DNA of 29,009 bases, taken from contig JABXHG010000333.1 in assembly GCA_013393545.1 (NCBI GenBank), positions 1-29,009 on the forward strand, given 5' to 3'. Positions 2,882 to 19,529 of this stretch are shown piece by piece. The DNA comes from Alteromonadaceae bacterium. Its GTDB lineage: Bacteria; Pseudomonadota; Gammaproteobacteria; Pseudomonadales; Oleiphilaceae. The position numbers and the translations under genes are program-made. The number at the start of each line of letters is the position of its first letter. Position 1 is the first letter of the stretch. The notes under the pieces are model-generated. The model searched no databases and was not told where the DNA came from. It saw only the letters and a list, made by a program, of their open reading frames with translations.

Positions 2882-3235
2882 GTGACAACAACGAAAACAA
2901 ACAGCGTGTGGGAACAGGATTTAATTGAAATCATCGGGGAGATAGCGCTACTCAAACTGGAAGCCCGGTTCGGAGGCTCGTACTTACACGTTCATGTCGA
3001 ACCGAAAGAAGAAGTGATTGCTGCCATTGGGAAGTCAGCAGCTGCAAAACTCAGCGCTGAATGTGGTGGGCTCGATGTTTACGTGCCGACCATTCTCTGG
3101 CGCATGAGGCGTAACGAGTCTATCGAGAGGGAACAAAACACGGGTAGAACAATAACCGAGCTCGCTTCAAAGTACCGCTTACACGCAAAGCATATCAAGA
3201 AGATCCTACGCGAGAGGCACGGTTACAATGTTTGA
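2882..3235 (+). CDS. Mor/C-family late transcription activator
   Basis: Predicted 117-residue member of the Mor transcription activator family, which in Mu (Mor and C) binds as a dimer upstream of middle and late promoters and recruits RNA polymerase. Residues 10-70 form the dimerisation part, with 'IEIIGEIALLKLEARFGG' and 'CGGLDVYVPT' typical of the family. Residues 89-110 are a C-terminal helix-turn-helix ('ITELASKYRLHAKHIKKIL'). It starts at GTG 2882 behind AAGGAG (2869-2874). As in Mu, it stands immediately before the lysis genes; it overlaps the next gene by 8 bp. Codons 83-89 contain the first copy of an 18-bp sequence repeated before two other late gene blocks. Whether it acts as Mor or as C cannot be told; with one such gene visible, a C-like late role is more likely. 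Confidence 0.85.
   Translation: MTTTKTNSVWEQDLIEIIGEIALLKLEARFGGSYLHVHVEPKEEVIAAIGKSAAAKLSAECGGLDVYVPTILWRMRRNESIEREQNTGRTITELASKYRLHAKHIKKILRERHGYNV
3130..3147 (+). promoter_or_regulatory. Late-block repeat element, copy 1 (Plys-like position)
   Basis: GGAACAAAACACGGGTAG, identical over 18 bp to the copy at 19453 and one base different from the copy at 9662. It lies inside the activator gene, about 80 bp before the first lysis-region gene, the position of Plys in Mu. The wider TCACC extension of the other two copies is absent here. Role as an activator or promoter site is inferred. Confidence 0.5.
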
Positions 3236-3911
3236 AACGGAAATGCTGTTTAAGGTTGGCGAGCAGTACGGGTGGCTGGCCGCACTGGCAGTTGCGGTGG
3301 TTACCGTTGGCGGTAAAGTCGTTAACCGATGGCTGGAGAGCCGTTACCTGAGTAAAGAAGCCAGCGAAGCGTCAGAGCTTCAATATGTTCAGGACGGTGC
3401 CTCGCTTGATGAACACCGTTTGTTCCTGGTTTGCAATTACTGGAACCGCCTTGGTATTGACCGCATTCCGTTCCCGGATAAATTCCCCATTCGCAGTGAA
3501 ATGTATCGTGACATGCTGAAAATTCTTATCAGCACGATGACCGAGCACCTGCAATCAAACATTGACTCACTCTCGAGCGCCGACAGCAACGCAGACTGGC
3601 AACGCAAGGCCACCGATACGTTGAGTAAAGCCGTTGCTGATTACGAGCACAAATTCAGAGACCAGGGCATTCCCGAGGTGGTTATTGAGCGCTTTCGCTC
3701 CTGGAATGTGCCGGCGCTTGGATTCATCACACACACCATTGGCACACTTGAAGAAAGCCAGATAGCAACGGACCACCGATATAAGACCAGTGCAATGCTC
3801 TCGACCGTGTTAGGAGCGCTTAAAACGGCTTTCTACGATGCCGAACGCACGTTGATTGGTCTCAATGGCCAGTTGACCGGACAAATCTACCGCGGGAAGG
3901 AGGTCGAGTAA
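3228..3911 (+). CDS. Membrane-anchored protein of the lysis region, function unknown
   Basis: Predicted 227-residue protein with one N-terminal hydrophobic segment (about residues 12-30, 'YGWLAALAVAVVTVGGKVV') followed by a long soluble helical region. I do not recognise a family. It overlaps the activator gene by 8 bp and its stop overlaps the start of the endolysin gene (TAATG), so the three are probably translated together. The position and single membrane anchor would suit a holin-like, spanin-like or lysis-regulating protein. However, the 190-residue soluble part is too large for a classical holin, and the downstream 3TM holin already fills that job. It starts at ATG 3228. Confidence 0.7.
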   Translation: MFETEMLFKVGEQYGWLAALAVAVVTVGGKVVNRWLESRYLSKEASEASELQYVQDGASLDEHRLFLVCNYWNRLGIDRIPFPDKFPIRSEMYRDMLKILISTMTEHLQSNIDSLSSADSNADWQRKATDTLSKAVADYEHKFRDQGIPEVVIERFRSWNVPALGFITHTIGTLEESQIATDHRYKTSAMLSTVLGALKTAFYDAERTLIGLNGQLTGQIYRGKEVE

Positions 3912-4327
3912 TGGCTTTTAAACTGAGCAATACAAGCCTTTCACGCCTCAAGCAGTGCCATCCACAACTCTGCATTGTGGTTACCCGCGCTATTCAAATC
4001 AGCCAAGTCGACTTCATTGTCGGTGCCGGTATTCGCAGCATTGAAGAGCAGCGCGAGAACGTGCGTAAAGGCGTTTCCGAAACGATGAACAGTAAGCACC
4101 TGCCACAAGCTGATGGTATGAGCCACGCTGTCGACTTATGGCCATGGGTGAAAGGGGAGATTCCCTGGGATGACTTAAGTGAGTTTCGCCGCGTTGCCGA
4201 TGCGATGCTTCAGGCCGCGCGGGAGCTTGATGTTGAACTTCTCTGGGGTGGTGACTGGGACCGCGATGGCGACTCAAGCGACCACGACTTTATTGATGGA
4301 CCACATTTTGAACTGGTGAGCGTATGA
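3911..4327 (+). CDS. Endolysin, M15 L-alanyl-D-glutamate peptidase type
   Basis: Predicted 138-residue zinc peptidase that cleaves the L-Ala-D-Glu bond of peptidoglycan at lysis. The M15 (VanY/Ply500-like) signature is present: 'SKHLPQADGMSHAVDLWP' at 61-78 gives zinc ligands His63 and Asp75, and 'GPHFEL' at 130-135 gives His132. The N-terminal 'LKQCHPQL' and 'RSIEEQRENVRKG' are also typical of phage M15 lysins. There is no signal peptide, so it needs a holin, which follows at once with a 4-bp overlap. The usual spacing between H and D is stretched by four residues, a common variation in this subgroup. Several phages use the same fold, so the exact bond cut is inferred. Confidence 0.88.
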   Translation: MAFKLSNTSLSRLKQCHPQLCIVVTRAIQISQVDFIVGAGIRSIEEQRENVRKGVSETMNSKHLPQADGMSHAVDLWPWVKGEIPWDDLSEFRRVADAMLQAARELDVELLWGGDWDRDGDSSDHDFIDGPHFELVSV

Positions 4328-4809
4328 GCTTCTTAAGCAAGGTAACAGATTTCTTCACAGGTGGGCTGGGCGAGAAGATTGTCGACGGTGTACAGGCGTA
4401 CTTCCCACCGGATATGACGCCCGAGCAAAAGGCAAAGCTCGAGATAGCCATTAAAGACCAATCACATAAGCGAGAAGTAGAATTACTCACTTTAGCGGCT
4501 GAGCAGGATGAAGAGTTCAACAACCGCATTCGTGACCTTGAAGGGACGGCCAAAGACCTGACCCAATTTGGTTGGCCGGGTCGCGTTGTTGTTTACCTGC
4601 GGGGTTGTCAGCGTCCGGCGTGGGGCGGGCTTGTCATGTACATGGATATTCAGTGGTTCAACGGTAACTGGTCAGGCTTAAGCGAGCAGCAGGAATCGGC
4701 ACTCTGGGTCATCAACATACTGGTGCTTGGGTTCCTGTTTGGTGAACGCGCAGTGAAGAACGTTATGCCGTTTATGACTCAATTTATGAAGCAGCGCGCC
4801 CAGAAGTAG
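4324..4809 (+). CDS. Holin, 3TM family
   Basis: Predicted 161-residue protein of the 'holin of 3TMs' type, which makes the inner-membrane lesion that releases the endolysin. The amphipathic N-terminal half ('DFFTGGLGEKIVDGVQAYFP', then a charged helix) is followed by 'RVVVYLRGCQRPAWGGLVMYM' and 'LWVINILVLGFLFGERAV', the membrane segments. The 'RP' in the first segment and the 'GFLFGERAVKN' ending are characteristic. It overlaps the endolysin gene by 4 bp and is followed by the small terminase gene, the order of Mu-like phages. Confidence 0.8.
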   Translation: MSFLSKVTDFFTGGLGEKIVDGVQAYFPPDMTPEQKAKLEIAIKDQSHKREVELLTLAAEQDEEFNNRIRDLEGTAKDLTQFGWPGRVVVYLRGCQRPAWGGLVMYMDIQWFNGNWSGLSEQQESALWVINILVLGFLFGERAVKNVMPFMTQFMKQRAQK

Positions 4810-4824
4810 TGAGGTAATCGAACG

Positions 4825-5316
4825 ATGGCAGCGACAAAGCGAACACCCGACCAGGTAATGCGAGACCAGGCAAGTATCGCTGAGATGTATCTCAAGGGTT
4901 TCAAGATGTTTGAAATCGCTGATACGCGCGGACTCTCGATGAACCAGGTTAAGTATGACTTACGGGAAGTTCGTAAGCGCTGGCGCCAAAGCTCCGTGCG
5001 TGACTTTGATGCTCATCGTGAAGAGCAACTGGCACGACTGGATCTGATGGAAGCGTCTCTCTGGAGAGAGTGGGAGCGCTCGTGTGGCATTCCGGAGGCT
5101 AAGAAAAGCAAAAAGTCGGATTTACCGCCACAGACAGGTGACCCACGCTACATGACTGTCATGCTGAATATCATTGAGCGTCGCAGCAAGTTACTGGGGC
5201 TTGATGCGCCGACCAAACTGGCACCGACTAACCCTGATGGTGATGAGCCGTATAAGCAAATTGCTCCTGATGAAATAGACGCACGGATCCATGAGTTACT
5301 GGCTAAGTTGGGGTAA
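4825..5316 (+). CDS. Terminase small subunit-like DNA-binding protein
   Basis: Predicted 163-residue protein directly before the large terminase gene and overlapping it at TAATG, so very probably the DNA-recognition subunit of the packaging motor. Residues about 15-55 form a helix-turn-helix ('SIAEMYLKGFKMFEIADTRG' then 'MNQVKYDLREVRKRW'). A central helical oligomerisation region follows ('REEQLARLDLMEASLWREWE'), and residues about 100-140 carry the 'GDPRYMTVMLNIIERRSKLL' segment seen in small terminases of Mu-like and related phages. The recognition site it would bind is unknown. The protein start is ATG 4825. Confidence 0.82.
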   Translation: MAATKRTPDQVMRDQASIAEMYLKGFKMFEIADTRGLSMNQVKYDLREVRKRWRQSSVRDFDAHREEQLARLDLMEASLWREWERSCGIPEAKKSKKSDLPPQTGDPRYMTVMLNIIERRSKLLGLDAPTKLAPTNPDGDEPYKQIAPDEIDARIHELLAKLG

Positions 5317-6896
5317 TGTCGCTGGCTGCCAAGCAGGAATTATTAGCGTTACTTGAGCGCAAATTAGCATTGAGAGCGCGTGACGACCTCAATGCTTACT
5401 GTCGTTATATCGATGTGCCAGGAGCACCGCTTAATGACGACGAAGATTGTGATGAGTTTTATCCTGATAGCGTGACGCCGGCAGAGCATCACGAGCTCAT
5501 TAACAACACGATGATGGATCTCGAAGCAGGCCGTAAGAAGCGGGTCATTGTGATGATGCCCCCGGGCTCTGCTAAGTCGACTTATGGCACCGTGGTATTC
5601 CCGACATGGTACATGGGACGTAACCCGGGCAAGTCGGTTATCAGCACCAGTTACGGCTCGAGCTTGTCGCTCAAATTCTCACGTAAGGTGAGGCAAGTCG
5701 TTAAGAGCCCGAAGTTCAGTGATGTATTTAATACCGAGCTGGTACCTGATAACCGGGCGCTGGAATTCTGGTCACTGAAGAACCAGTCCAGCTACATGTG
5801 CGGCGGTATTCTCTCAGGCATTACCGGTAACCGTGCTGATGGTCTGGTAATTGACGACCCGGTGAAAGGGCGTGAACAGGCAGACAGCCAGACCATACGA
5901 GAGAAGACGTGGGAAGCGTATACCTCAGACCTCCGGACACGTCTAAAGCCCAATGGCTGGATATTGCTGATACAGACGCGCTGGCATGAAGATGACTTAG
6001 CCGGTCGAATACTTCCGGATGACTGGGATGGTGAAAGCGGCTACGTCACTGCGAAGGATGGTGAGGAATGGTACGTCGTTTGCCTTCAGGCGCAATGTGA
6101 GCGTGAAGACGATCCGCTTGGTCGTGAAATTGGTGAATGGTTATGGACTGATTGGTTCACTCCGGAGCATTGGGCACAGGAGAAGCTATCGCAGGGCAGC
6201 CGTAACTGGGAGTCACTTTACCAGCAGAGGCCGAAGCCGCTCGAAGGCTCCATCATCAAACGCATCTGGCCTAAGCGCTATAACACTCGACCGGCTGAAT
6301 TTATGCGCCTGGTCATGTCGCTGGATACGGCATATAAGCCTGAGCAGCACAACGACCCGAGCGTCTTGAGTATCTGGGGAGAGGCTGAACAGGGGCATTA
6401 TTTGCTTCATGTCTGGCGCGACAGGGTGGAATACCCTGAGTTAAAACGCATTGTGGCTAACTATTACATGAATTGGCGAACGGATGCAGTGCTCATTGAA
6501 GACAAGGCCTCGGGTCAGTCGCTGATACAGGAGCTGAGGCAGGGCGTAGAGCTTTCACAATACCCGAACAAGATAGTGATGCCGGTTATTGCTATTGAGC
6601 CTGACGGCAGCAAGCTGAACCGGGCAATACGTGTCAGTTCACAATTTGAAGCAGGGCGGGTGTGGTTACCAGAACATGAGCCCTGGCTAATTGATTACGA
6701 GTCTGAGCTATTTGGTTTCCCCCTGGCGACACATGATGACCAAGTGGACAGTACAACGCAGTATTTGGAATGGGCTAGCAATCGAACAGTTGATGTTGTT
6801 TCTGCAAGTACAGGTCGCAGAGAGACGAGCAACGATTTAGGTTTAGGTGATATGAGCTCCGGTGGTGGCCGTGGCCGTTTTGGAGGATATTTATAA
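5316..6896 (+). CDS. Terminase large subunit
   Basis: Predicted 526-residue ATPase-nuclease that pumps DNA into the procapsid. Walker A is 'PPGSAKST' at 82-89 and Walker B is 'LVIDD' at 177-181. The coupling region follows with 'ILLIQTRWHEDDLAG' at 216-230. The C-terminal RNase H-like nuclease shows 'LVMSLDTAYK' (Asp337), 'VLIEDKASGQ' (Glu395 and Asp396) and 'ATHDDQVDS' (Asp474, Asp475, Asp478). The set of acids is complete, so both activities should be intact. It overlaps the small terminase gene upstream and the portal gene downstream through TAATG junctions. Length fits the terminase_6/Mu gp28-like group. The packaging strategy (headful or other) cannot be read from sequence alone. Confidence 0.95.
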   Translation: MSLAAKQELLALLERKLALRARDDLNAYCRYIDVPGAPLNDDEDCDEFYPDSVTPAEHHELINNTMMDLEAGRKKRVIVMMPPGSAKSTYGTVVFPTWYMGRNPGKSVISTSYGSSLSLKFSRKVRQVVKSPKFSDVFNTELVPDNRALEFWSLKNQSSYMCGGILSGITGNRADGLVIDDPVKGREQADSQTIREKTWEAYTSDLRTRLKPNGWILLIQTRWHEDDLAGRILPDDWDGESGYVTAKDGEEWYVVCLQAQCEREDDPLGREIGEWLWTDWFTPEHWAQEKLSQGSRNWESLYQQRPKPLEGSIIKRIWPKRYNTRPAEFMRLVMSLDTAYKPEQHNDPSVLSIWGEAEQGHYLLHVWRDRVEYPELKRIVANYYMNWRTDAVLIEDKASGQSLIQELRQGVELSQYPNKIVMPVIAIEPDGSKLNRAIRVSSQFEAGRVWLPEHEPWLIDYESELFGFPLATHDDQVDSTTQYLEWASNRTVDVVSASTGRRETSNDLGLGDMSSGGGRGRFGGYL

Positions 6897-8380
6897 TGGC
6901 TGATACCAAGAAGCCAAAGTTTACTGAATTATCGAAGGTTGACCATGGCAAACAGATGGCCAAGGCGCTTATCGAGATCATGATCGACAACCCGGATTCC
7001 ATTCTGAAGTCGAAAGGGAATGGCCAGCTGAATATCTATAAGGATCTGTTGCGGGACGATCAGGTTAAGAGCTGTTTCCAACAAAGACGCACCGCGGTAA
7101 CTCAGTCCGAGTATCAGGTTACACCGGCAAGCGAGAGCGCAGCGGATAAAGAAGCGGCACTGTTCGTTGAGGACATGCTCAGTCATATTGGCTTTGATCA
7201 GCTGACTGACAAAATGCTTTATGCCATTCACTTTGGCTGGAGTGTTGCTGAGCTGATGTTTGGTCAGGAAGAAAGCCGGATCACATTAGACCAGGTTAAG
7301 GTTCGGGACCGCGGGCGTTTTGCCTTCAGCGCAACCAACGATTTACTGCTGAAAAAAGACAGTAAGACATTTCCTATGCCGGCTAATAAGTTCTGGGTAT
7401 TCAGTCACGGTGCAGACCACGACGATAACCCTTATGGTGAAGGGCTGGCACACTCACTGTATTGGCCCGTGTTCTTTAAGCGCAACGGCATTAAGTTCTG
7501 GCTCATATTCCTCGAGAAGTTCGGGATGCCCACCGCAACCGCTAAACTGCCCAGCTCGCAAATTAAAGACCGCAAGCAACGCGAACAGGCTCTGGAAGTG
7601 TTAGATGCTATTCAGGCGGACAGCGGCGTAGTCGTTCCGGAAGACATGGTTATCGAGTTGGTGGAAGCGTCCCGGAGTGGTACCGCGGATTATTCCCAGT
7701 TGCAGGGGGCTATGGACAGAGCGATATCCAAAATCATTCTGTCGCAAACGATGACCACTGATGACGGATCGAGTATGTCCCAGGCGCAGGTTCATAAAGG
7801 CGTGAAAGACGACATCATAAAAGCGGATGCGGATATGGTGTGCGATAGCTTCAACCGACAGGTTATCGAGCCGCTGATTGCACTTAACTTTGCTGACGCT
7901 CAACCGCCTAAGGTATGGCGTAAGACTGAGCCGGAGGAAGACCTGGCACAGGTTGCCGAGCGTGACCATAAGATTTACCAGTTAGGCTATGAGCCCACCG
8001 AAGAGTATGTAAAAGAAACCTATGGACCAGGGTGGCGAAAACGTCAGGCAGCACCATCCATGCCATTCGGTAACCAGGTCGATCCTATGGGCACTGAGTT
8101 TGCTGAAGTATCTCCATTGACGGAAAAGCGGGTTCAACACCGTCGTGACCAGCGCGACATCGTAGATGCGGGTGAGTATTTAGCAACAGATCCAGAGCAG
8201 GCGGTGGGGCCATTGGTTCGGAAAATTGTAGAGTTTGCCCGAACCGCTGAGAGTGAAGAAGAGTTCGTTAAACGCTTAGACGAACTGGCAGAGCAGGACC
8301 CGGACAATAAAGTCGTTGAGCGGGTTCGTAACGCTAACATCATGGCGCGTATGCGTGGTTATACGAAGAACGCGGGTTAA
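6896..8380 (+). CDS. Portal protein, DUF935 (Mu gp29) family
   Basis: Predicted 494-residue portal, the ring through which DNA enters the head. The pattern is that of the DUF935/Mu gp29 family: an N-terminal 'NGQLNIYKDLLRDDQVKSCF' with 'QQRRTAVTQSEYQV', then 'MLYAIHFGWSVAELMFG'. The central 'NPYGEGLAHSLYWPVFFKRN' follows, then 'KFWLIFLEKFGMPTATAKL', and 'ILSQTMTTDDGSSMSQAQVH' in the latter half. The C-terminal 100 residues are acidic and helical. It starts at TAATG after the terminase and is followed by the gpF-type gene, the Mu order 28-29-30. Confidence 0.93.
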   Translation: MADTKKPKFTELSKVDHGKQMAKALIEIMIDNPDSILKSKGNGQLNIYKDLLRDDQVKSCFQQRRTAVTQSEYQVTPASESAADKEAALFVEDMLSHIGFDQLTDKMLYAIHFGWSVAELMFGQEESRITLDQVKVRDRGRFAFSATNDLLLKKDSKTFPMPANKFWVFSHGADHDDNPYGEGLAHSLYWPVFFKRNGIKFWLIFLEKFGMPTATAKLPSSQIKDRKQREQALEVLDAIQADSGVVVPEDMVIELVEASRSGTADYSQLQGAMDRAISKIILSQTMTTDDGSSMSQAQVHKGVKDDIIKADADMVCDSFNRQVIEPLIALNFADAQPPKVWRKTEPEEDLAQVAERDHKIYQLGYEPTEEYVKETYGPGWRKRQAAPSMPFGNQVDPMGTEFAEVSPLTEKRVQHRRDQRDIVDAGEYLATDPEQAVGPLVRKIVEFARTAESEEEFVKRLDELAEQDPDNKVVERVRNANIMARMRGYTKNAG

Positions 8381-8382
8381 CC

Positions 8383-9099
8383 ATGCGCATTAACGGTATC
8401 GTTAACTATTACGAAGCAGCTGCGCAGTTTGAACTGACAGCGGAAGAAGCACTGGAGCTGTTCCTGTCGAAAGGACTCTCACGCTCATTCCGCTGGGACC
8501 AGATGATTCGTAATGAACATGATGTGGCGTTCACCGTTGCTAAGTTGATGAACGGTGACCTTCTGGACTTTGTGAAAAAGGAACTTACCAAGGTTATCGA
8601 TTCAGGCGCCACCTTTGATGACTTTGCTGACAAGATAACGCCGGCACTTCAGCGTCATGGCTGGTGGGGGAAGCGTGACGTTCTCGACCCGTATAGCGGC
8701 CAAGTTATAGAAGCTCGCCTCGGCAGTGCCAGCCGCCTGGAAACGATATTCCGGACTAACTTACAAAGCGCCTACGCAAAAGGTCAGTGGGAATCGATTG
8801 AAGAGAACATGAGTAGCATGCCGTACCTGATGTACGATGCGGTAGACGACTCTCGCGTGAGGCCTGAGCACGCTCAATGGGACGGCATTGTTCTACCTGC
8901 TGACCATTCATTCTGGCAAAGTCATTACCCTCCAAACGGTTACAATTGCCGCTGTGGCGTCATTCAGCTAAGCTGGCAGGACTTGCAGGATTACGGCTTA
9001 CAAGTGTCAGAGCCGCCATCAGTCAATTGGCAAGTACATACGGCTGCGGATGGGCGTGAGATAGCCCACCCTCAGGGGGTAGAACCGACATTTGTGTGA
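8383..9099 (+). CDS. Minor head protein, Mu gpF/SPP1 gp7 family
   Basis: Predicted 238-residue head morphogenesis protein. The family core is clear: 'SRLETIFRTNLQSAYAKGQW' at about 117-136, 'YLMYDAVDDSRVRPEHAQWD', then 'SHYPPNGYNCRCGVIQLSW' with the invariant NCRC at 188-191. In Mu and SPP1 this protein is packed in small numbers and helps procapsid assembly or DNA ejection. It is shorter than Mu gpF, lacking a long C-terminal extension. The gene is followed at once by an AT-rich accessory gene whose GTG overlaps its last codons, so an insertion has taken place just behind it. Confidence 0.92.
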   Translation: MRINGIVNYYEAAAQFELTAEEALELFLSKGLSRSFRWDQMIRNEHDVAFTVAKLMNGDLLDFVKKELTKVIDSGATFDDFADKITPALQRHGWWGKRDVLDPYSGQVIEARLGSASRLETIFRTNLQSAYAKGQWESIEENMSSMPYLMYDAVDDSRVRPEHAQWDGIVLPADHSFWQSHYPPNGYNCRCGVIQLSWQDLQDYGLQVSEPPSVNWQVHTAADGREIAHPQGVEPTFV

Positions 9100-9668
9100 T
9101 TAAAATGGTAAATTTCAGATCAGTTTTTTTTAAGATATTCAGGCTGAATAAGAAGGTAGCCGAGTGGGCAATCGTAAAAACTCTAACTTCTGATAAAACT
9201 GATAGTCTTAGGGATAAATCCTTGTTTTGGGGAGGTATTGCAATGCTCCTTGATTTATCGGGAGCAAGCGCTGGTAAGTTATTTGTTCTGGAATTCGACC
9301 CTCCGCTTGGTACACACATTCTGTCTCTTATTGTTCTGATATTAAGTGCGTATTATTTTATCCACTGGGTAAAGTCAATTCAAAGCGACGTGATTGGTTT
9401 TCAAATAAGACAGTTATCAGACCCGATAGTTGATCTCGGAGTTAAGCTTGACGAAACAAGGAATACTTGGAATAACTTACCCGAGTACCTTCTGGCTGAT
9501 GTTTCCAATGAAAGGGAGCAACTACAGATCACCTTCGCAGCTATCAAAAAGAAAGAACGACAACTGCGACGAGCTAGTTCATATAGGAACTTGCTTTTTT
9601 GGCTTGTAGATGTTCTACCAATGCCAATAATGCTTAGCATCAACCTTTATCTATTTTTTACGGAATAA
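9096..9668 (+). CDS. AT-rich accessory (moron-like) membrane protein, unknown function
   Basis: Predicted 190-residue protein (187 if ATG 9105 is used instead of GTG 9096). Hydrophobic stretches at about 44-64, 73-92 and 165-187 suggest three membrane spans with a charged helical region between the second and third. I recognise no family. It is visibly richer in A and T than the flanking head genes, with many T-runs, and splits the Mu gene order between gpF and gpI, so it looks acquired. Its TAA stop lies inside the second copy of the late-block repeat. It overlaps gpF by 4 bp and so could be translated with the late genes. Superinfection exclusion or another envelope function is a reasonable guess only. 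Confidence 0.75.
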   Translation: MIKMVNFRSVFFKIFRLNKKVAEWAIVKTLTSDKTDSLRDKSLFWGGIAMLLDLSGASAGKLFVLEFDPPLGTHILSLIVLILSAYYFIHWVKSIQSDVIGFQIRQLSDPIVDLGVKLDETRNTWNNLPEYLLADVSNEREQLQITFAAIKKKERQLRRASSYRNLLFWLVDVLPMPIMLSINLYLFFTE

Positions 9669-9684
9669 AACACGGGTAGTCACC
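9662..9684 (+). promoter_or_regulatory. Late-block repeat element, copy 2 (PI-like position)
   Basis: GGAATAAAACACGGGTAG followed by TCACC. It matches 22 of 23 bases of the copy at 19453-19475. It lies about 50 bp before the gpI-like start, where Mu has its C-dependent PI promoter. It also contains the stop codon of the preceding gene. Promoter or activator-site role is inferred. Confidence 0.55.
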
Positions 9685-9732
9685 TAATCCCCATAGGTTG
9701 ACAATCACGGCAGTCATAGAGGATTGCCGTGT

Positions 9733-10881
9733 ATGAAACGAATCAACATTTTTAAAACCGGGACGCATACCAGCTCCAATGGTGCGACCCTGGACTTTTC
9801 CGAAGATAAACTTCAAGGCTCTGCTGAGTCTTACAACCCATCCGTTCACGAAGCGCCAATTGTTATTGGCCACCCCAAAGATAATGGTCCAGCTTATGGC
9901 TGGGTTAAGTCGATGGAGTTTTCAGAGGGAAGTCTTGATGCTATCCCTGACCAGGTGAACGAAGACTTTGCCGAAATGGTTAAGAAGGGCTCCTTTAAAA
10001 AGGTCAGCGCTAGCTTCTACCTTCCTGATGCACCGAACAATCCAAGCCCGGGCAATCTTTATCTACGCCACGTAGGCTTTTTGGGTGCCCAACCGCCAGC
10101 AATCAAAGGCCTGTCAGCTGTCGACTTCTCAGAACAGGAGGAGGGCGTTGTCGAGTTTGAAGAAGACTGGCGAACAACGATGGAAGTGTCGACTGTTGCG
10201 CAAATCTTCAAAGCCATGCGCGAATTTATCATCGACAAATTTAGCAAAGACGAAGCCGACAAGACCCTCCCGGACTACCTCATTGATGATTTACGAACGT
10301 CAGCGGAAGAGCGCCGCAAGGCAGACGACTCTCCGGTGACTGATTTTAGCGAAAGCGAAACTGACCCGGAGCACGATATGAAACTGGAAGACGCACTGGC
10401 CAAGGTCAACGACCTGGAAAGCCAGAAAACTCAGCTTGAATCAGACAAGCAGAAGCTTGCTGATGAAAACGAAACCCTGAAATCAAAGGTTACTTCGTTC
10501 ACTGAAGCTGAAAACAAACGCCGCAAAGAAGCGCTGACGGCGCAAGTCGATGCGCTTGTTAAAGGCGGCAAAGTAACTCCTGCCGAGCGCGGCAAGGTGC
10601 TTGCCTTTGCTGAGCGCCTGGGCGACCAGACGGTCGACTTTGGCGAGGCTGACGATGAGAAAGGTTTGAATGCTCAGAACGAGTATTTGAAGTCTCTGGA
10701 AGATCGTAAACCTGTGGTGGACTTTAAAGAGCACTCAGGTGACGAAAACGGTGGGGATCAACCACAGACCGCTCAAAGCTTAGCTGCAAAAGCAGTTGAG
10801 TATCAGGAGCAACAACGTAAGGCCGGCCGCAATGTCTCTATTGCCGAGGCGGTTAATCATTTATCTAAAGACGCGGAGTAA
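9733..10881 (+). CDS. Phage protease/scaffold, Mu gpI-like
   Basis: Predicted 382-residue head maturation protease with a C-terminal scaffold. The start chosen is ATG 9733, behind AGAGGA (9718-9723); the frame is open three codons further with TTG. Residues 1-130 are the protease: 'IVIGHPKDNGPAYGWV' with His47, and 'FKKVSASFYLP' with Ser92 or Ser94 as likely active-site pair, in the order known for Mu-like prophage proteases. 'YLRHVGFLGAQPPAIKGL' closes the domain. Residues about 216-275 are a strong charged coiled coil, the scaffold part, and the C-terminal 'EYQEQQRKAGRNVSIAEAV' helix probably binds capsid subunits. It is the first gene after the second late-block repeat. Confidence 0.88.
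   Translation: MKRINIFKTGTHTSSNGATLDFSEDKLQGSAESYNPSVHEAPIVIGHPKDNGPAYGWVKSMEFSEGSLDAIPDQVNEDFAEMVKKGSFKKVSASFYLPDAPNNPSPGNLYLRHVGFLGAQPPAIKGLSAVDFSEQEEGVVEFEEDWRTTMEVSTVAQIFKAMREFIIDKFSKDEADKTLPDYLIDDLRTSAEERRKADDSPVTDFSESETDPEHDMKLEDALAKVNDLESQKTQLESDKQKLADENETLKSKVTSFTEAENKRRKEALTAQVDALVKGGKVTPAERGKVLAFAERLGDQTVDFGEADDEKGLNAQNEYLKSLEDRKPVVDFKEHSGDENGGDQPQTAQSLAAKAVEYQEQQRKAGRNVSIAEAVNHLSKDAE
10378..10881 (+). CDS. Possible nested scaffold protein (Mu gpZ-like internal start)
   Basis: Within the protease gene an in-frame ATG at 10378 is preceded by CGGAG (10367-10371) at good spacing. It would give a 167-residue protein beginning MKLEDALAKVNDLE, consisting of the coiled-coil scaffold without the protease. 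Mu encodes its scaffold Z this way inside gene I. The ribosome site and domain boundary coincide, which supports the idea, but the internal start is inferred. Confidence 0.45.
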   Translation: MKLEDALAKVNDLESQKTQLESDKQKLADENETLKSKVTSFTEAENKRRKEALTAQVDALVKGGKVTPAERGKVLAFAERLGDQTVDFGEADDEKGLNAQNEYLKSLEDRKPVVDFKEHSGDENGGDQPQTAQSLAAKAVEYQEQQRKAGRNVSIAEAVNHLSKDAE

Positions 10882-10887
10882 ACGCAG

Positions 10888-11247: not shown

Positions 11248-11261
11248 GGGGTAGCTAAGTC

Positions 11262-12182: not shown

Positions 12183-12217
12183 GCGCCCCTCACTCACCTT
12201 AACTGGAGAACAACACT

Positions 12218-12499: not shown

Positions 12500-12501
12500 C
12501 G

Positions 12502-13867: not shown

Positions 13868-14028
13868 TCATTGTGACCGCTGAGAGCAAGTGCCGCCGCG
13901 CGGGTATCGATTTCAAAAAGGGTAAGAATGAATTCAAGCAGCTGTCAGCTGCGAAGCTTGCGCAAATTGAAGCCGACGATCGTCTGTCGGTTGAGCACAT
14001 CAAAAAGAAAGAAGGTGGTGAGAAATGA
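13864..14028 (+). CDS. Small phage protein, Mu gp38/HI1506-like
   Basis: A 54-residue gene starting at ATG 13864, sharing ATGA with the stop of the terminator-like gene, and ending in the TGA that overlaps the tail tube start. The protein opens 'MIIVTAESKCRRAGIDFKKG' and continues with 'KQLSAAKLAQIEADDRLSVE' and a Lys/Glu-rich tail. This recalls small proteins found between the terminator and tube genes in FluMu and other Mu-like prophages. Tight overlap on both sides makes it a real gene despite its size. Its function is not known. Confidence 0.75.
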   Translation: MIIVTAESKCRRAGIDFKKGKNEFKQLSAAKLAQIEADDRLSVEHIKKKEGGEK

Positions 14029-14951
14029 GCCGCAGATCAAAGAAAAAGCTGATTGTTGGACTAGCCAACGATGGAGCTAGTGCTTACGGAACCGACTTCA
14101 TTGACGCCGGTGGTACCGGCCAGGCAATACAGACTACAGGCCTTGAAATAACGCCTCTTGAAGGTGAAGAAATTGAGCGTGAGCTAGATGACGGTAAATC
14201 TGGCAGTAAGCCGATGATCATGTCCGGTATACACGTGAAGCTAAGCGGAAGCGTTGAGGCTGCAGGATCTGGGGATGCGATCAGTCCGGTTAAGTACCAG
14301 GCTATTTTGCAATGCGCAGGGCGTACTGCAACCGTTGGTACAACGGAAGTGACTTATACCCGTATCAACGATAACTCAGAGCCTGATGCCACGTTTTATT
14401 ACTACAACGATGGTGCACTCCATAAACTTGTCGGCGCAAGAGCAACCAGTGGCGCATCGTTAAAAGTAGGTGAGCTGCCAACGTTCACATTCGAGATTAC
14501 CGGCCTTTATGGTGGCGTGGTAGAGACAGGCATGCCTTCCTCGCCTGATTTCTCAGGTTTCCAGACACCACTGAAGGTTGGCCATGAGAATACAACCTTC
14601 ATGCTCGATGGTACCGAGTACCCGATGTTTGAATTCGAGTATGAAGAGAATAACGAAGTCAGCTATTCAGAAAATACCATCGATGAAGAAATCGACATTA
14701 CCGACTGGAAACCGGATGGAACCATCGTAGTTGAAGCGCCAGCTTTGAGTGACTTCGATCCTTTCTCGATTGCGACGTCAAATGCTCAGTTACCGCTTTC
14801 AATCACTCACGGGCTGACAGCCGGCAATATCGTTTCGGTTACTTCAACGGCTATTCAGCTGGGTAAACCAACCTACGGCGACCGCGAAGGGAAACTGACC
14901 CTAAGCATGCCGTTTCGTTTTATTGATGATCCGATCATCGAAAGTAAATAA
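14025..14951 (+). CDS. Major tail tube protein
   Basis: Predicted 308-residue protein, rich in beta strands, Gly, Thr and Glu, in the position of the siphophage tail tube gene (lambda V). Consistent features are 'KSGSKPMIMSGIHVKLSGSV', 'EVTYTRINDNSEPDATFYYY', 'LKVGELPTFTFEITGLYGGV' and the C-terminal 'EGKLTLSMPFRFIDDP'. It precedes a frameshifted chaperone pair and the tape measure gene, the fixed order of long non-contractile tails. There is no sheath gene beside it, so the tail should be flexible like lambda or B3/D3112, not contractile like Mu. Confidence 0.85.
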   Translation: MSRRSKKKLIVGLANDGASAYGTDFIDAGGTGQAIQTTGLEITPLEGEEIERELDDGKSGSKPMIMSGIHVKLSGSVEAAGSGDAISPVKYQAILQCAGRTATVGTTEVTYTRINDNSEPDATFYYYNDGALHKLVGARATSGASLKVGELPTFTFEITGLYGGVVETGMPSSPDFSGFQTPLKVGHENTTFMLDGTEYPMFEFEYEENNEVSYSENTIDEEIDITDWKPDGTIVVEAPALSDFDPFSIATSNAQLPLSITHGLTAGNIVSVTSTAIQLGKPTYGDREGKLTLSMPFRFIDDPIIESK

Positions 14952-14962
14952 GGAGCAATTCA

Positions 14963-15292
14963 GTGGCTTTTAAATTAGCGAAGAACCCCATTAAATCAGA
15001 CGCAACGGTTTCCGTGTCTGTGCCTGGCCATAAGAAGCCTCAGGAGTTTACCGCGAAGTTTCTGATCATGAAGCATGAAGAGTACCGTGAACGTACTGAA
15101 AAGCGTTCCGATGATTTGGAGCTTTTGAAAGAGGTTGTTGTAGGTTGGGACGGTGTTGAAGACGACAGTGGCAACGACTTTCCGTTTTCGGAAGAAGCCC
15201 TGGTTCAGCTCTGTGAGTACACCTTTGTGCGAACCGCTTTACTGCGTGCGTACAACGAATTGATGTTTGGGTATACCCCGGCAAAAAACTAG
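14963..15292 (+). CDS. Tail assembly chaperone, lambda gpG-like
   Basis: Predicted 109-residue protein between tube and tape measure genes. It starts at GTG 14963 behind AGGAG (14951-14955). The fold seems to be a small beta part ('TVSVSVPGHKKPQEFTAKFL') followed by helices ('EALVQLCEYTFVRTALLRAY'). In lambda, gpG and its frameshifted form gpGT coat the tape measure during tail assembly and are then lost. Here the last sense codons before TAG are a perfect slippery heptamer, so a minority of ribosomes should shift and continue into the next frame, giving a longer fusion ending at 15651. Confidence 0.85.
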   Translation: MAFKLAKNPIKSDATVSVSVPGHKKPQEFTAKFLIMKHEEYRERTEKRSDDLELLKEVVVGWDGVEDDSGNDFPFSEEALVQLCEYTFVRTALLRAYNELMFGYTPAKN

Positions 15293-15328
15293 AAGCGGTG
15301 GCCCGTTACTGGGCGCATGGTCCCACCG
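15283..15328 (+). promoter_or_regulatory. Programmed -1 frameshift site with stimulatory hairpin
   Basis: The heptamer A AAA AAC (15283-15289) is in the correct phase and directly precedes the TAG stop. A -1 slip continues CTA GAA GCG GTG into the frame of the next gene without a stop. A stem CGGTGG (15296-15301) with CCACCG (15323-15328) begins 6 bases after the heptamer, a typical stimulatory distance, and an inner CCC/GGG pairing is possible. This matches the gpG/gpGT arrangement. Efficiency cannot be judged from sequence. Confidence 0.85.
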
Positions 15329-15651
15329 TTAACGAACAGGAGCGCCGGGAGCTTACTGCAGAAATGCGAGCTTTTGGCGCGACTGATGATGATATCGAGA
15401 GCTACCTAAAAGCAAACGCAACCGATAATGACTGCATTGTCATAGAGGAAAACTGGCCTGTACTGCAGTGGTTCCTGAGTATTGATGATCAGTTTTCGTA
15501 TGTGAATGGCGTTTGCACAGGTATCGATATTGCGTCCATCCAGGCTGATGCCGAAATGTCAGCGCGAGAACATACCTCTGAGCAATATAAGCACCTTCGG
15601 TATTTAACCAAGTGTGTAACCCGAGAGCTCAATAGCCGTCTGGAGAAATAG
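15298..15651 (+). CDS. Tail chaperone T part, made as gpGT-like frameshift fusion
   Basis: An open frame, -1 relative to the upstream chaperone gene. It is entered at 15289 after the slip, though GTG 15298 could serve as an independent start; no ribosome site is evident there, which favours the fusion. The protein is acidic and mostly helical ('NEQERRELTAEMRAFGATDD', 'EENWPVLQWFLSIDDQFSYV', 'TSEQYKHLRYLTKCVTRELN'), recalling DUF1799-type tail proteins. It should bind the tape measure protein encoded next. The full fusion (14963 to 15651 through the shift) would be about 230 residues. Confidence 0.8.
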   Translation: MARYWAHGPTVNEQERRELTAEMRAFGATDDDIESYLKANATDNDCIVIEENWPVLQWFLSIDDQFSYVNGVCTGIDIASIQADAEMSAREHTSEQYKHLRYLTKCVTRELNSRLEK

Positions 15652-15652
15652 C

Positions 15653-18301
15653 ATGCCGATGCGTCTGTCCGTTCTATTTACTGGTAATAACCGAGGCCTT
15701 AAGAAAGCCACTCGTGAAGGTCGGTCTGAACTGGATAAATTCAAAAACACTGCTGTAAATGTCGCGGGTAAATTGGCTGCTGCCTACGGTGGGGCTACGG
15801 CCGCACGCGCGATATTCAATACTACCAGAGAAGTTGAGCGGCTTGACTCTCAGTTAAATGTAGCCATGGGTGGGATGGAAGCCGGCAGACGGAAGTTTGC
15901 TCAGCTTAATAAATTCGCTTCAGATGTCGGGGTTAACGTTCAGGAGGTAACTCGCGCATTTGTTCAGCTTCGGAATGTCGGTTTGAATCCTTCCGAGGAA
16001 GCAATACTGAGTTATATGAATACGGCGGGCGCCACAGGTAAGAGTCTTGAGCAGTTCGTAGAAGCGGTTGCCGATGCGACCATGGGGCAATACGAGCGAC
16101 TGAACGAGTTTGGCATCAAAGCCCGAAAAGAGGGTGACAAAGTTGCTGTCAGCTTCCGCGGAAATACCGAAATCATTGATGACAGTGCTCAGGCGATAGA
16201 GGAATATCTCAAAGCTCTGGGCGAGAATGAGTTTGGAGGATATGTAAAAAACCAGTTAGATGGCGTGAACGATGCGCTCGCAGATCTAAATAACCAATGG
16301 ATAGACAGCATTAAAACTATGAATGATGCTGGTCTTGGTGAGGTTATATCCGCTGGTTTAGAAGTGGCAACTGAATCACTGGCCGGACTGACAGAGTTTG
16401 TTGATGAAAACGGCGAGCAAATCATCGATGTCGGTAAAGCCATCGCTGCAGTATTTGCAGCGCGTATGGCTGGTTCGATTGGAACTGCCAGCCAGGCTTT
16501 TATTATGCACATGGCTTACCAGCAGCAGGTGACAGCACGTTATGCCCGCATGAATGGTATTGCTGCGACAACTGCGACTCGATTACGCGCTATTGGAACA
16601 TCGGCACGGTTTGCTTCTCGCGGCATGGCTATGCTGGGTGGTCCGGTTGGAATTGCCGCATTGGCTGCCATGGCCATTTATGACTTTGCTTCTGAAGCAG
16701 ATAATGCAACTGAACCAACTAAATCTCTTAAAGAGCAAATTGATGGGCTGACTGAAAGCTTCGAGAATATGACCGCTGCGCAGCGCGAGAGTGCTCGTAT
16801 CAAGATTAGCGGGCGTATAGCTGAAATTGAGGATGAGATAGAAGCTGCTGAACGACTGAAATATACCCAGAAGACTCTTGCTGAGAATGATGGCGAGAGA
16901 GCTGGTTTTGAACAGTTCATTGGTTTGGAGCCTGGGGACTTAGAAAACATTGGTGACGCGGCAACGCATTCACAATCAAATATTGATGAATTAAAGGCGC
17001 GCGTTAAGGAATTAAAAAAGGATCTTAAAGACCTCGAAGAACCATCCAAAAAATCCTCTGATTCACTAGACAACCTGAACCAGTCACTCAAAGATCAGGC
17101 CGAAGAATATGGGAAAGTAACCCTCTCACTAACAGACCAGATCTATAAGCTTCAGGAAGGCGAGGCGGCATACGAACGCTTGAGCATGGCTCGTAAACTT
17201 GGGTTGTCCTTAGATAGTGAAGAGATGAAGAATCTCGATGGGCTTATCGCTATTCGGGATAAACTGATTCAGAAGAAAGAAAAGGATCTCGAATTAGAGC
17301 GCCAGCGTCAGAATATGCAAAACTCCCTTGGCTCTCTGACTCAACAGTTAACACCGGGCATGGCTGCTGTAAATCAGCATGCCAACAATATGGATAATCT
17401 GGATTCAGCACAGCAAGACCCAAGCCTTATGTCTACTTTGCAAGTTAGCGATGGGCAGGGTGGTTTCCGTGACGAGACGGAAGTAGAGAAGCGCATGCGC
17501 ATCAATCAGATGATTGAACTTGAGCAACAGCGACACGCAGGTGAGATGGCTCGTATCAATGGCGAAATGTCCTCTGAAATGGATGCAATGTGGTCGGAAA
17601 CGTTTGACCGGTTTGCAGCTGGTATTGGCGATGCTGTCGCGACTTCAGTTCTGGAAGCCAAAGACTTTGGTGACTTGATGCAGAACTTGGCTAAAAGCGT
17701 TCTGAAAACAGTCATATCTGGGCTTGTTGAAATAGGTGTTAAACGCATGATCCTGGCGGGGATTGAACAATCGACGGCTGCATCTACTGCGGCAGCAAAT
17801 ACAGCTGCGGGTGTTGCGAGTGCGACAGCTCTAACGGCTGCCTATACTCCAGCAGCCACTATGGCCAGTTTGGCTACTATGGGCGGTAACTCTGCCGGCG
17901 CAATATCGGGAATGACAGCGGCAGCCTCTACAGCTAAAGGACTGAGTATAACCGGTATGGCTCACGACGGTATTGGCCGAGTGCCAGCAGCCAACGAAGG
18001 TACCTGGATGCTTAAGCGTGGCGAGATGGTAATGAATCCAGCGCAGCGTGAGAACTTTGAATTTATGATCAGTGCTATGAAGCAGCAGCGCGCTCAATCC
18101 GGAGGTCAGCAAAGCGGAGGTTCGTCACGCCCGGTTCAGATAGTTCAAAATGTTCAGGTAGACGCACGGAACGCGGAAGCGGGCGTTGGAACTGAAGTAG
18201 AAGAAGCAATGGAGCGCGCTAACGAGCGGCTGAAGCAAGACCTATACGATGACTTCAGCAATGGTGGGCCGCTCTATCAGAGGCTGAAGGCGTCGGGTTA
18301 A
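15653..18301 (+). CDS. Tail tape measure protein
   Basis: Predicted 882-residue protein setting tail length and later passing DNA. It is almost wholly helical. An N-terminal part carries 'LNKFASDVGVNVQEVTRAFV' and related tape-measure repeats. A hydrophobic segment lies near 320-345 ('MLGGPVGIAALAAMAIYDFA'), followed by long charged coiled coils around 370-480 and 530-570. The C-terminal region is lambda gpH-like: 'DLMQNLAKSVLKTVISGLVE' and, near residue 765-800, 'MAHDGIGRVPAANEGTWMLK' followed by 'RGEMVMNPAQ'. At the usual ratio this length predicts a tail of roughly 130 nm. The stop overlaps the end of a convergent accessory gene by 4 bp. Confidence 0.93.
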   Translation: MPMRLSVLFTGNNRGLKKATREGRSELDKFKNTAVNVAGKLAAAYGGATAARAIFNTTREVERLDSQLNVAMGGMEAGRRKFAQLNKFASDVGVNVQEVTRAFVQLRNVGLNPSEEAILSYMNTAGATGKSLEQFVEAVADATMGQYERLNEFGIKARKEGDKVAVSFRGNTEIIDDSAQAIEEYLKALGENEFGGYVKNQLDGVNDALADLNNQWIDSIKTMNDAGLGEVISAGLEVATESLAGLTEFVDENGEQIIDVGKAIAAVFAARMAGSIGTASQAFIMHMAYQQQVTARYARMNGIAATTATRLRAIGTSARFASRGMAMLGGPVGIAALAAMAIYDFASEADNATEPTKSLKEQIDGLTESFENMTAAQRESARIKISGRIAEIEDEIEAAERLKYTQKTLAENDGERAGFEQFIGLEPGDLENIGDAATHSQSNIDELKARVKELKKDLKDLEEPSKKSSDSLDNLNQSLKDQAEEYGKVTLSLTDQIYKLQEGEAAYERLSMARKLGLSLDSEEMKNLDGLIAIRDKLIQKKEKDLELERQRQNMQNSLGSLTQQLTPGMAAVNQHANNMDNLDSAQQDPSLMSTLQVSDGQGGFRDETEVEKRMRINQMIELEQQRHAGEMARINGEMSSEMDAMWSETFDRFAAGIGDAVATSVLEAKDFGDLMQNLAKSVLKTVISGLVEIGVKRMILAGIEQSTAASTAAANTAAGVASATALTAAYTPAATMASLATMGGNSAGAISGMTAAASTAKGLSITGMAHDGIGRVPAANEGTWMLKRGEMVMNPAQRENFEFMISAMKQQRAQSGGQQSGGSSRPVQIVQNVQVDARNAEAGVGTEVEEAMERANERLKQDLYDDFSNGGPLYQRLKASG

Positions 18302-18714
18302 GAGTGTTTTGTATTAGCAACCTCTGCCATGTCTTGAGGGAAAGGTAGCTCGACGGGATGAGAACTAAAACCAACTAATATTACGCGTGTGAGCCCAGCT
18401 TTTTTATCTATTTTTTTTGAGAAGATAATTACATCGTCTGATGTTTTGAAGCAACCATTTTCAGACTCTTCCCAACACGGAGTGCCCAAGTGGTAGTGGT
18501 ATAAATTATAGTCTTTTGCAGTTTTAATTCGACGATCACGATTGGGTTCATTGAGGGGAACATTATCACTTTTCTTTAGCTTACCAGGTAATTGACCTAG
18601 GCCGCTTTTCATTACGTGCTTTACGAAAGTGAGTAGTGCTTTCTGCTGGATTTCACTCATGTGATAGTAATGGTGCTCTAGAAAATGCTGAGTCCTTTCA
18701 ACCTTATATTTCAT
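18298..18714 (-). CDS. Antisense accessory protein, possible YafO/RelE-fold toxin
   Basis: Predicted 138-residue protein, second gene of an antisense pair inserted between tape measure and tail-tip genes. Residues about 25-60 ('LTFVKHVMKSGLGQLPGKLK') and 70-115 ('DYNLYHYHLG', 'KTSDDVIIFSKKIDKK', 'TRVILVGFSSHP') have the helix-then-strand order and His-rich strand seen in YafO-like ribosome-dependent RNases. The likeness is faint and was judged by eye. The start ATG 18714 follows the upstream stop by 14 bp with GGGG before it, so the two are co-transcribed. Base composition is more AT-rich than the tail genes. It may be a toxin, an anti-phage effector or something else. Confidence 0.7.
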   Translation of the reverse strand: MKYKVERTQHFLEHHYYHMSEIQQKALLTFVKHVMKSGLGQLPGKLKKSDNVPLNEPNRDRRIKTAKDYNLYHYHLGTPCWEESENGCFKTSDDVIIFSKKIDKKAGLTRVILVGFSSHPVELPFPQDMAEVANTKHS

Positions 18715-18728
18715 GAGCAGCCCCGGCG

Positions 18729-19280
18729 TTAAGCCTTCATTAAAGCATCGAATTCTTCAAAGCTATCGAAGTCGCCAATTTCCTTAGTGTTATCTGTGCG
18801 GAGATCCTCGGTCATCTCATCGAGTTTGTCAGCACCTATATGCTCATAAAAGGTCTCTGAAGCTGTTCTTTCGAACAACGACGACAGGGCTAGGAACACA
18901 TTCTCTGTACGCTCTAAGAGGCCTTCAAAATCTTTTTCGAATGTCATTGGTACTCGTTTAAGTATTTTTTGTCGTTCATTTCGCATATCAAGGATCATTG
19001 TATTAACGACACCACGGAAATGGGTCGCAATTCCGGTGATGGAGCCGGGCAACTCATGTTTCTTTAATTCTTCTGTAACGTCTTCCCGCGATAAACGTAA
19101 AGCTAAAGGTTCAGCGATCGTCAGATATTCTTCAAGATTATTTTTAACTTCTTGAGCTTTCTGAATATCTTCCAGTGAGACACCTCGAATGAACTTAGGG
19201 GTGCGGATAATGCGCTCCATCACTTGGGGAGCCGTTTCAGGCGTTACATCATGAAGTAGCTGAATGTCATCTAATGGCAT
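18729..19280 (-). CDS. Antisense accessory helical protein, first gene of the pair
   Basis: Predicted 183-residue, strongly acidic, all-helical protein of no family I recognise. Visible parts are 'LHDVTPETAPQVMERIIRTP', 'LEEYLTIAEPLALRLSREDV', a central 'ATHFRGVVNTMILDMRNERQ' and an acidic C-terminus ('GDFDSFEEFDALMKA'). There is no membrane segment or signal peptide. It has its own promoter about 50 bp upstream on the minus strand and a dyad between promoter and gene, and is followed by a possible toxin gene. The arrangement would suit an antitoxin or regulator plus effector, but it is long for an antitoxin and no DNA-binding motif is evident. The ATG 19280 has AAGGA upstream at a somewhat long spacing. 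Confidence 0.75.
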   Translation of the reverse strand: MPLDDIQLLHDVTPETAPQVMERIIRTPKFIRGVSLEDIQKAQEVKNNLEEYLTIAEPLALRLSREDVTEELKKHELPGSITGIATHFRGVVNTMILDMRNERQKILKRVPMTFEKDFEGLLERTENVFLALSSLFERTASETFYEHIGADKLDEMTEDLRTDNTKEIGDFDSFEEFDALMKA

Positions 19281-19301
19281 TGTTTACAAAATCCTTATTA
19301 C

Positions 19302-19316
19302 GCAAGTTCATCTTGC
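19302..19316 (-). promoter_or_regulatory. Dyad between the antisense promoter and its first gene (possible operator)
   Basis: GCAAG (19302-19306) and CTTGC (19312-19316) form a perfect inverted repeat with a 5-base centre. It lies about 15 bp downstream of the -10 box, in the expected early transcribed region. That position would suit autorepression, or a small RNA hairpin. Binding is inferred. Confidence 0.45.
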
Positions 19317-19331
19317 ACAAATTGGTCGCGA

Positions 19332-19360
19332 ATTATACATTTTGATGCGCAAACTTACAA
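19332..19360 (-). promoter_or_regulatory. Sigma70-type promoter for the antisense pair
   Basis: On the minus strand, TTGTAA (complement of 19355-19360) and TATAAT (complement of 19332-19337) are exactly 17 bp apart. The -10 is a perfect consensus and the -35 matches four of six. The pair can therefore be expressed in the lysogen independently of late phage transcription, running against it. Confidence 0.75.
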
Positions 19361-19452
19361 CTCTGCACACAAAGCGACTATTTCTGCGACACTTCTACTA
19401 TCGGCAAGAACCAAAAAATAATCAACCCTTATTGAAAAAACGGTGAGCATTC

Positions 19453-19475
19453 GGAACAAAACACGGGTAGTCACC
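19453..19475 (+). promoter_or_regulatory. Late-block repeat element, copy 3 (PP-like position)
   Basis: GGAACAAAACACGGGTAG followed by TCACC, identical over 18 bp to copy 1 and over 22 of 23 bp to copy 2. It stands about 55 bp before the first tail-tip gene and just beyond the antisense cassette, corresponding to the Mu PP promoter. A fresh promoter here would be needed to express the tail genes past the opposing transcription unit. Role inferred. Confidence 0.55.
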
Positions 19476-19529
19476 CAGCACTAAACTTCCCACAATCCAG
19501 CCATTGTCGTTTAATTACGGAATGGCTGA

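What the first reader, a model, noticed from the sequence alone, without database searches (positions are those of the whole stretch)
3130..19475. Three-copy 18-bp element placed exactly where Mu late promoters would be
GGAAYAAAACACGGGTAG occurs at 3130, 9662 and 19453, and I found it nowhere else on the plus strand. Copies 2 and 3 also share the next five bases. Each copy stands before a late gene block: lysis, gpI protease and tail tip. In Mu the C-dependent promoters Plys, PI and PP precede the same blocks, and this phage has a Mor/C-family activator but no known target site. The element is not a dyad like the Mu C site and no -10 box sits at a fixed distance, so it may be a new type of late-activator site.
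Basis: partly seen in the sequence, partly recalled or inferred. Interest (0 to 1): 0.75.

Follow-up and report, generated by a model that had tools for sequence, protein, structure and literature searches.

The report
Late-gene switch sites, one inside activator
A family of marine bacterial viruses carries a repeated DNA tag in front of its late gene blocks that very probably is the landing site of the virus's own late-gene activator protein, and one copy of the tag sits inside the gene for that protein, a variant of a known control system.

Summary
In detail: GGAAYAAAACACGGGTAG is at 3130, 9662 and 19453 and nowhere else within 3 mismatches, either strand. Copy 1 is inside the activator gene itself (Mor-family ORF 2882-3235), in the codons just before its helix-turn-helix. 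And a -10-like hexamer does lie at a fixed distance, 22 bases after CGGGT: at 15 reference sites from five lineages it matches TATAAT at 4-5 of 6 in 14 and 3 of 6 in one (copy 1). The element thus sits at about -50 to -33, where Mu Mor binds. The 13 records grouped into these lineages all have the site inside mor and before the protease gene; a fourteenth related phage (G031, Mor 36% identical) has no recognisable element. The element changes together at all sites of one phage: copies within a phage differ by 2.06 of 18 bases, the same site in different phages by 5.26; the adjacent spacer shows the opposite. I conclude these are Mor-dependent late promoters (lysis/packaging, head, tail tip) with a non-palindromic operator. 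No expression or binding data exist here. A new variant of a known kind.

The parts
2882..3235 (+). Mor/C-family late transcription activator gene (117 aa)
   Evidence: Pfam PF08765 38.6 bits against cut-off 24.9; PHROG 836 'late transcriptional activator' 4.5e-20
3130..3147 (+). Element copy 1 (operator of proposed promoter P1), inside mor; encodes EQNTGR just before the HTH
   Evidence: 24 nt 3130-3153 invariant in 6 phages, 7 of 7 degenerate codons unchanged
3168..3173 (+). Proposed -10 of P1, CAAAGT (3 of 6 to TATAAT)
   Evidence: fixed offset 22 after CGGGT
3228..3911 (+). First gene after P1 (unknown function, PHROG 18926); then endolysin 3911-4327, terminase large subunit 5316-6896, portal 6896-8380, minor head 8383-9099
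9096..9668 (+). Variable ORF immediately upstream of copy 2; its stop codon TAA is element bases 5-7
9662..9679 (+). Element copy 2 (operator of proposed promoter P2)
9700..9705 (+). Proposed -10 of P2, GACAAT (4 of 6)
9733..10881 (+). Head maturation protease (gpI type; ORF listed from TTG 9724, start at ATG 9733 is my choice), first gene of the head block
   Evidence: PHROG 976 5.3e-116
19453..19470 (+). Element copy 3 (operator of proposed promoter P3)
19491..19496 (+). Proposed -10 of P3, CACAAT (4 of 6)
19530..20132 (+). Distal tail protein, first gene of the tail-tip block
   Evidence: PHROG 1302 1.4e-32

Best explanation
The three copies are the operators of three activator-dependent sigma70-type late promoters. 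Each operator lies at about -50 to -33, followed after 20 bases by a weak -10 (consensus CAMAAT) and no good -35. The 117-residue Mor-family protein binds there, probably as a dimer next to sigma region 4 and alpha-CTD, and replaces the missing -35 contact. P1 (predicted start about 3180) drives lysis, terminase, portal and minor head genes; P2 (about 9712) protease, scaffold, major head and tail; P3 (about 19503) the tail tip. P1's operator is written inside the activator's own coding sequence. Shown: conservation, concerted change and fixed spacing. Inferred: that Mor is the binding protein, the start points, and the RNA polymerase contacts.
For: (1) Exact pattern in IMG/VR: 12 matches, in only four contigs, three in each, at the same three places. 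(2) A prophage in Idiomarina sp. ATCH4 has the same three; in four whole host genomes all 8 exact matches to the 13-base core lie in the prophages. (3) Lineages with Mor 39-55% identical to the window's carry altered elements inside mor and before the protease. (4) Concerted change: same phage, different site 2.06 mismatches of 18 (16 pairs); different phage, same site 5.26 (23 pairs); the adjacent 20-base spacer 14.38 against 11.43. (5) Hexamer at offset 22: all 8 protease and distal-tail sites of the five lineages match TATAAT at 4 of 6; next best offset averages 2.5; 0 of 3000 shuffles reach it. Control: 15 matches (13 distinct) of the D/E element in other IMG/VR contigs, none with a Mor hit in the stretch held, have 0 to 3 matches there. 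(6) Geometry: the Mu Mor dyad spans -51 to -36, centred at -43.5, in a promoter with a -10 but no -35 (PMC4287176, passages). (7) GGAAN5-6ACGGGTR in 72 sequences (1.12 Mb, both strands): found in the window (3 sites plus one match at 23858 taken as chance) and 7 loci of lineages A-C; in none of 60 other head-protein loci or 4 pieces of G031 and G022.
Against: No transcript or binding data. The element is not palindromic, although Mu Mor and C bind dyads. The in-mor copy and its -10 lie in codons of conserved residues (NTG; LAxKY), so their conservation is not independent evidence, and the window's own P1 -10 is the weakest (3 of 6). G031, with the same head-gene order and a 36%-identical Mor, has no recognisable element. 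Seven Mor genes in G128, G099, G065 and G017, 38-41% identical to the window's (as close as lineage E) but with no related late genes in the fetched flanks, lack the element. More distant Mor-like hits in L138, L084 (G022), L145 and L154 also lack it. G731 (lineage E) has no convincing third site, only a 4-mismatch candidate inside the tape-measure gene. A core-plus-hexamer pattern also matches in 32 of 38 IMG/VR stretches that are not sites of these lineages. The alignment and the offset were found by inspection before being tested.
Confidence: 0.85

Rival explanations
1. The promoters are real, but the factor that binds the element is another phage or host protein, not the Mor-family protein.
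For: No binding data; Mu-type activators bind dyads and this element is not one. G031 has a Mor but no such element.
Against: Exact matches to the core are absent from the rest of four host genomes, so no host regulon is visible. The element differs between lineages whose mor genes differ, and in all 13 records one copy is inside that gene. Mor is the only late-activator family hit among the window ORFs scanned (20 with PHROGs, 17 with Pfam; not all ORFs were scanned).
Confidence: 0.1
2. The element is a recombination or module-boundary sequence that lets neighbouring genes be swapped, and it was seeded from the mor gene.
For: Between the window and its five close relatives DNA homology resumes 0-14 bases before copies 2 and 3 in 9 of 10 comparisons; in 000026 it runs through the slot before copy 2.
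Against: In lineage B (3 of 4 records looked at) both slots are empty, the element starting 6 bases after the last base of the minor-head and tape-measure genes, yet it is conserved. Copy 1 is at no module boundary. A -10-like hexamer at one fixed offset is not expected of a recombination site.
Confidence: 0.04
3. The copies act in RNA (antitermination, processing or translation), not as DNA operators.
For: They lie 62 to 98 bases before gene starts in the window, on the coding strand only.
Against: The conserved downstream feature is a -10-like hexamer at fixed offset, with short leaders of about 20-50 bases from the predicted starts to the gene starts; spacers of one phage differ at 14.38 of 20 bases. 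RNA folding was not run.
Confidence: 0.04
4. Copy 1 is only coding sequence: the codons for E-Q-N-T-G-R happen to match the operator of copies 2 and 3, and no promoter lies in mor.
For: Residues NTG and LAxKY are conserved in the protein; the window's P1 -10 is weak.
Against: All 18 bases are identical to copy 3, and 7 of 7 degenerate codons are unchanged in six phages where mor overall keeps 33 of 86. The in-mor site changes with the other sites across five lineages and carries the hexamer at the same offset.
Confidence: 0.1

Closest known systems
Bacteriophage Mu C-dependent late promoters (Plys, PI, PP, Pmom)
   Same: Mor/C-family activator encoded just before the lysis genes; separate late promoters for lysis, head (I) and tail (P) genes; activator site near -35 with poor core elements (PMC4461284, part 1 and passages).
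   Different: Mu sites are dyads (PMC4287176 passages); these are not. Mu Plys is annotated at 10403-10469, after the end of gene C at 10385; here the equivalent site is inside the activator gene. The window carries a lambda P-type replication protein and RusA.
Mu middle promoter Pm with Mor
   Same: Activator site at -51 to -36 replacing the -35, with a -10 (PMC4287176, PMC4390567 passages).
   Different: Pm site is two 5-bp inverted repeats with a 6-bp spacer; here an asymmetric GGAA-N5/6-ACGGGTRR.

Membership tests
Mor/C transcription activator family (the 117-aa protein) | Mor domain by curated profile | tested here: met
   PF08765 38.6 bits, cut-off 24.9; PHROG 836 late transcriptional activator 4.5e-20
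Mor/C transcription activator family (the 117-aa protein) | Match to solved Mu C / Mor structures | tested here: inconclusive
   Profile search of PDB: none at 1e-3 with A1; with A3 Mu C E=0.028 and Mor 0.27. Foldseek best hit Mu C in 9l0x but E=0.23, TM 0.34
Mu-type C-dependent late promoter set | Shared site before lysis, head and tail blocks | tested here: met
Mu-type C-dependent late promoter set | -10 hexamer at fixed distance from the activator site, site near -35/-43 | tested here: met
   hexamer at offset 22 has 4 or more matches at 14 of 15 reference sites, 3 at the other
Mu-type C-dependent late promoter set | Dyad-symmetric activator site | tested here: not met
   best 5-6-5 register averages 2.07 of 5 pairs
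Mu-type C-dependent late promoter set | Transcription depends on the activator | not testable with these tools
   needs transcript mapping and reporter assays

The most novel reading that the evidence does not exclude
The activator's operator is written into the codons of its own DNA-binding domain, so one stretch of DNA specifies both the loop before the recognition helices and the sequence the protein must find. The gene would then travel with its own specificity tag and drive concerted change of all late operators in a phage. Mor dimers would here read an asymmetric site.
Probability: 0.3. Interest if true: 0.8.

Novelty: new variant of a known kind. Interest (0 to 1): 0.6.

Why it matters
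It gives a defined, testable late-promoter code for a group of phages that use a Mor/C activator but carry lambda-type replication genes, beyond the Mu sites described in the papers I saw. Five natural activator-operator pairs, with Mor proteins 38-67% identical to each other, would allow the specificity of the Mor/C family to be mapped. The operator inside the activator's DNA-binding-domain codons poses a clear question about how an activator and its targets stay matched during module exchange.

Tried and rejected
A dyad in the Mu 5-6-5 arrangement was sought and not found. GGGTAGTCACC(C) looks like a small palindrome at copies 2 and 3 of the window, but copy 1 and the other lineages lack it, so it was dropped. 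G031 (same head-gene order, Mor 36% identical) was searched for the element and for any recurring 17-mer of its mor gene; nothing stood out, though sense-strand matches were more numerous than antisense ones and I did not pursue them. The fetched pieces of G022, G128, G099, G065, G017, G376 and G086 have no GGAAN5-6ACGGGTR in or near mor; one match in G065, about 19 kb from mor, and the match at window 23858 were taken as chance. The C/T difference at element base 5 was explained: T in copy 2 gives an in-frame TAA that ends the upstream ORF in 4 of 6 clade A phages. Terminator scans near copies 2 and 3 gave nothing above shuffles. PADLOC found no defence family in 10 slot proteins. In the phages collection, window 1-24000 has no megablast match and the Mor protein no tblastn match at 1e-5. 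Literature searches (only listed rows seen, e.g. 15 of 93) showed no paper on this element; subscription journals are mostly not held.
Full report
What is there. The 18-mer occurs three times, on one strand, with no other match at 3 mismatches. Copy 1 lies inside ORF 2882-3235, whose product matches Pfam Mor and PHROG 836, late transcriptional activator. It encodes residues 84-89 (EQNTGR), at the end of a predicted helix and in the loop before the last two helices (AlphaFold model, mean pLDDT 82.1, 8-row alignment). Copy 2 lies before the head maturation protease, copy 3 before the distal tail protein. Downstream of copy 1 come an unknown gene, an endolysin, the terminase large subunit, portal and minor head genes.

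Relatives. An exact scan of IMG/VR found the element in four contigs only, three copies each, at the same three places in phages 72-93% identical to the window over BLAST blocks. A genome scan with the major head protein found prophages in Idiomarina sp. ATCH4, I. loihiensis SN11, a Pseudidiomarina indica MAG and I. xiamenensis. I group the records that carry the element into five lineages. A: window, four IMG/VR contigs and ATCH4 (6 records). B: L026, L027, L098, L100 (4 records; L026 and L098 may be the same prophage). C: I. xiamenensis, mor and late genes on different contigs (1). D: UViG_3300026367_000108 (G210). Pairwise Mor identities between lineages are 38-67%. The in-mor site and the protease site are present in 13 of 13 of these records; the site before the distal tail gene in 11 of 12 that have that gene (E lacks it; no homologue was found in the 35.5 kb of D searched).

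D and E. D has two further same-strand sites: one inside the terminase gene (2 mismatches to its in-mor form) and one inside the ORF 4136-2748, 174 bases before the start of the next ORF (3 mismatches). The opposite strand and the backward control gave none. In the whole 4.2 Mb genome G731, the only two exact matches to its own form are the two prophage sites; with 2 mismatches there are four more, against three for the backward control.

Concerted change. The element reads GGAAYAAAACACGGGTAG in A; GGAAAAAACACGGGTGG or -AG in B and C (in mor it ends -GT; C's distal tail copy has CGCGGGT); and GGAANTNNTACGGGTAA in D and E (E's protease copy starts CGAA). Aligned on CGGGT without gaps, the GGAA of A lies one base further upstream than in the others. 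Within a phage, different sites differ by 2.06 of 18 bases (16 pairs); the same site in different phages by 5.26 (23 pairs). For the 20-base spacer the order is reversed, 14.38 and 11.43. Sites of one phage therefore follow each other and not their genes, as expected for operators of one protein.

The -10. Aligned on CGGGT, the hexamer 22 bases further matches TATAAT at 4 of 6 in all 8 protease and distal-tail sites; the next best offset averages 2.5; 0 of 3000 shuffles reach 4.0. Over all 15 sites the matches are 3 (window copy 1), 5 (D terminase) and 4 (13 others). A natural control: 15 matches (13 distinct) of the D/E element in IMG/VR contigs without a Mor hit in the stretch held have 0-3 matches at that offset. 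Taking the hexamer as -12 to -7, the 18-mer spans -50 to -33. Mu Mor binds -51 to -36, centred at -43.5, in a promoter with a -10 and no -35 (PMC4287176 passages; PMC4390567 passages). For Mu C I read part 1 of 4 and passages of PMC4461284.

The copy inside mor. In six clade A phages the run 3130-3153 is invariant, starting at the first base of the element. It holds 7 of 7 degenerate codons unchanged, where mor as a whole keeps 33 of 86. It is the longest run in mor and the ninth longest of 1992 runs in 11 genes, so it is notable but not unique. In Mu, Plys is annotated after the C gene, not in it.

Limits. G031 has the same head-gene order and a 36%-identical Mor, without any element I could recognise. 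In it the residues NTG are replaced by ETK. Seven Mor genes of G128, G099, G065 and G017, 38-41% identical to the window's and without related late genes in the fetched flanks, also lack the element. Of 67 head-protein loci in IMG/VR, 7 (all of lineages A-C) carry GGAAN5-6ACGGGTR and 60 do not; 3 of those 60 gave a Mor-profile hit (L138, L145, L154), and many are fragments. A looser scan for core plus hexamer gave 38 IMG/VR stretches, of which 6 are mor or protease sites of lineages B and C and 32 are other places. Nothing here measures transcription or binding. PDB comparisons support Mu C as nearest solved relative only weakly.

Variable slots. Between the window and its five clade A relatives, homology resumes 0-14 bases before copy 2 or 3 in 9 of 10 comparisons; the exception is 000026 before copy 2. 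The slot before copy 2 is 556-570 bases long in all six phages although most pairs do not align. In lineage B (L026, L027, L100 looked at) both slots are empty and the element starts 6 bases after the end of the upstream gene. So new genes arrive upstream of the promoter and leave it intact. In 4 of 6 clade A phages the upstream ORF ends on the TAA inside copy 2.

Verdict. Activator-dependent late promoters, very probably read by the Mor-family protein, of a known general kind, with an asymmetric operator and one operator inside the activator gene.

Noticed in passing
window 9096-9661 and the same slot in L012, L013, L014, L015, L025: The slot between minor head gene and copy 2 is 556-570 bases in all six clade A phages, yet only 2 of 15 pairs align by blastn: a constant-length, fast-changing or swapped gene of unknown function. 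In G031 and G731 the same slot holds about 8 and 10 kb.
   Followed up: partly
window 18302-19452 and the same slot in L020-L023, L025, L028: A second variable slot before copy 3; window has two antisense ORFs there, 000056 and ATCH4 share theirs, 000320 and 002212 share 211 bases. No PADLOC family in 10 proteins of the two slots.
   Followed up: partly
window 9662-9679: Base 5 of the element is T only in copy 2 of clade A, which gives a TAA that ends the upstream ORF in 4 of 6 phages.
   Followed up: yes
window 1012-1142: Three 36-nt direct repeats (64-92% identical to the first) inside ORF 679-1557, next to a lambda P-like gene; may be replication-origin iterons.
   Followed up: no
window 10329-10385: 57 nt of the protease gene are invariant in six phages, the longest such run of the 11 genes compared; unexplained.
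   Followed up: no
L184, L186, L188, L189, L191, L193 (G128, G099, G065): Genomes with two Mor-like genes each that have no related phage late genes in the fetched flanks.
   Followed up: no
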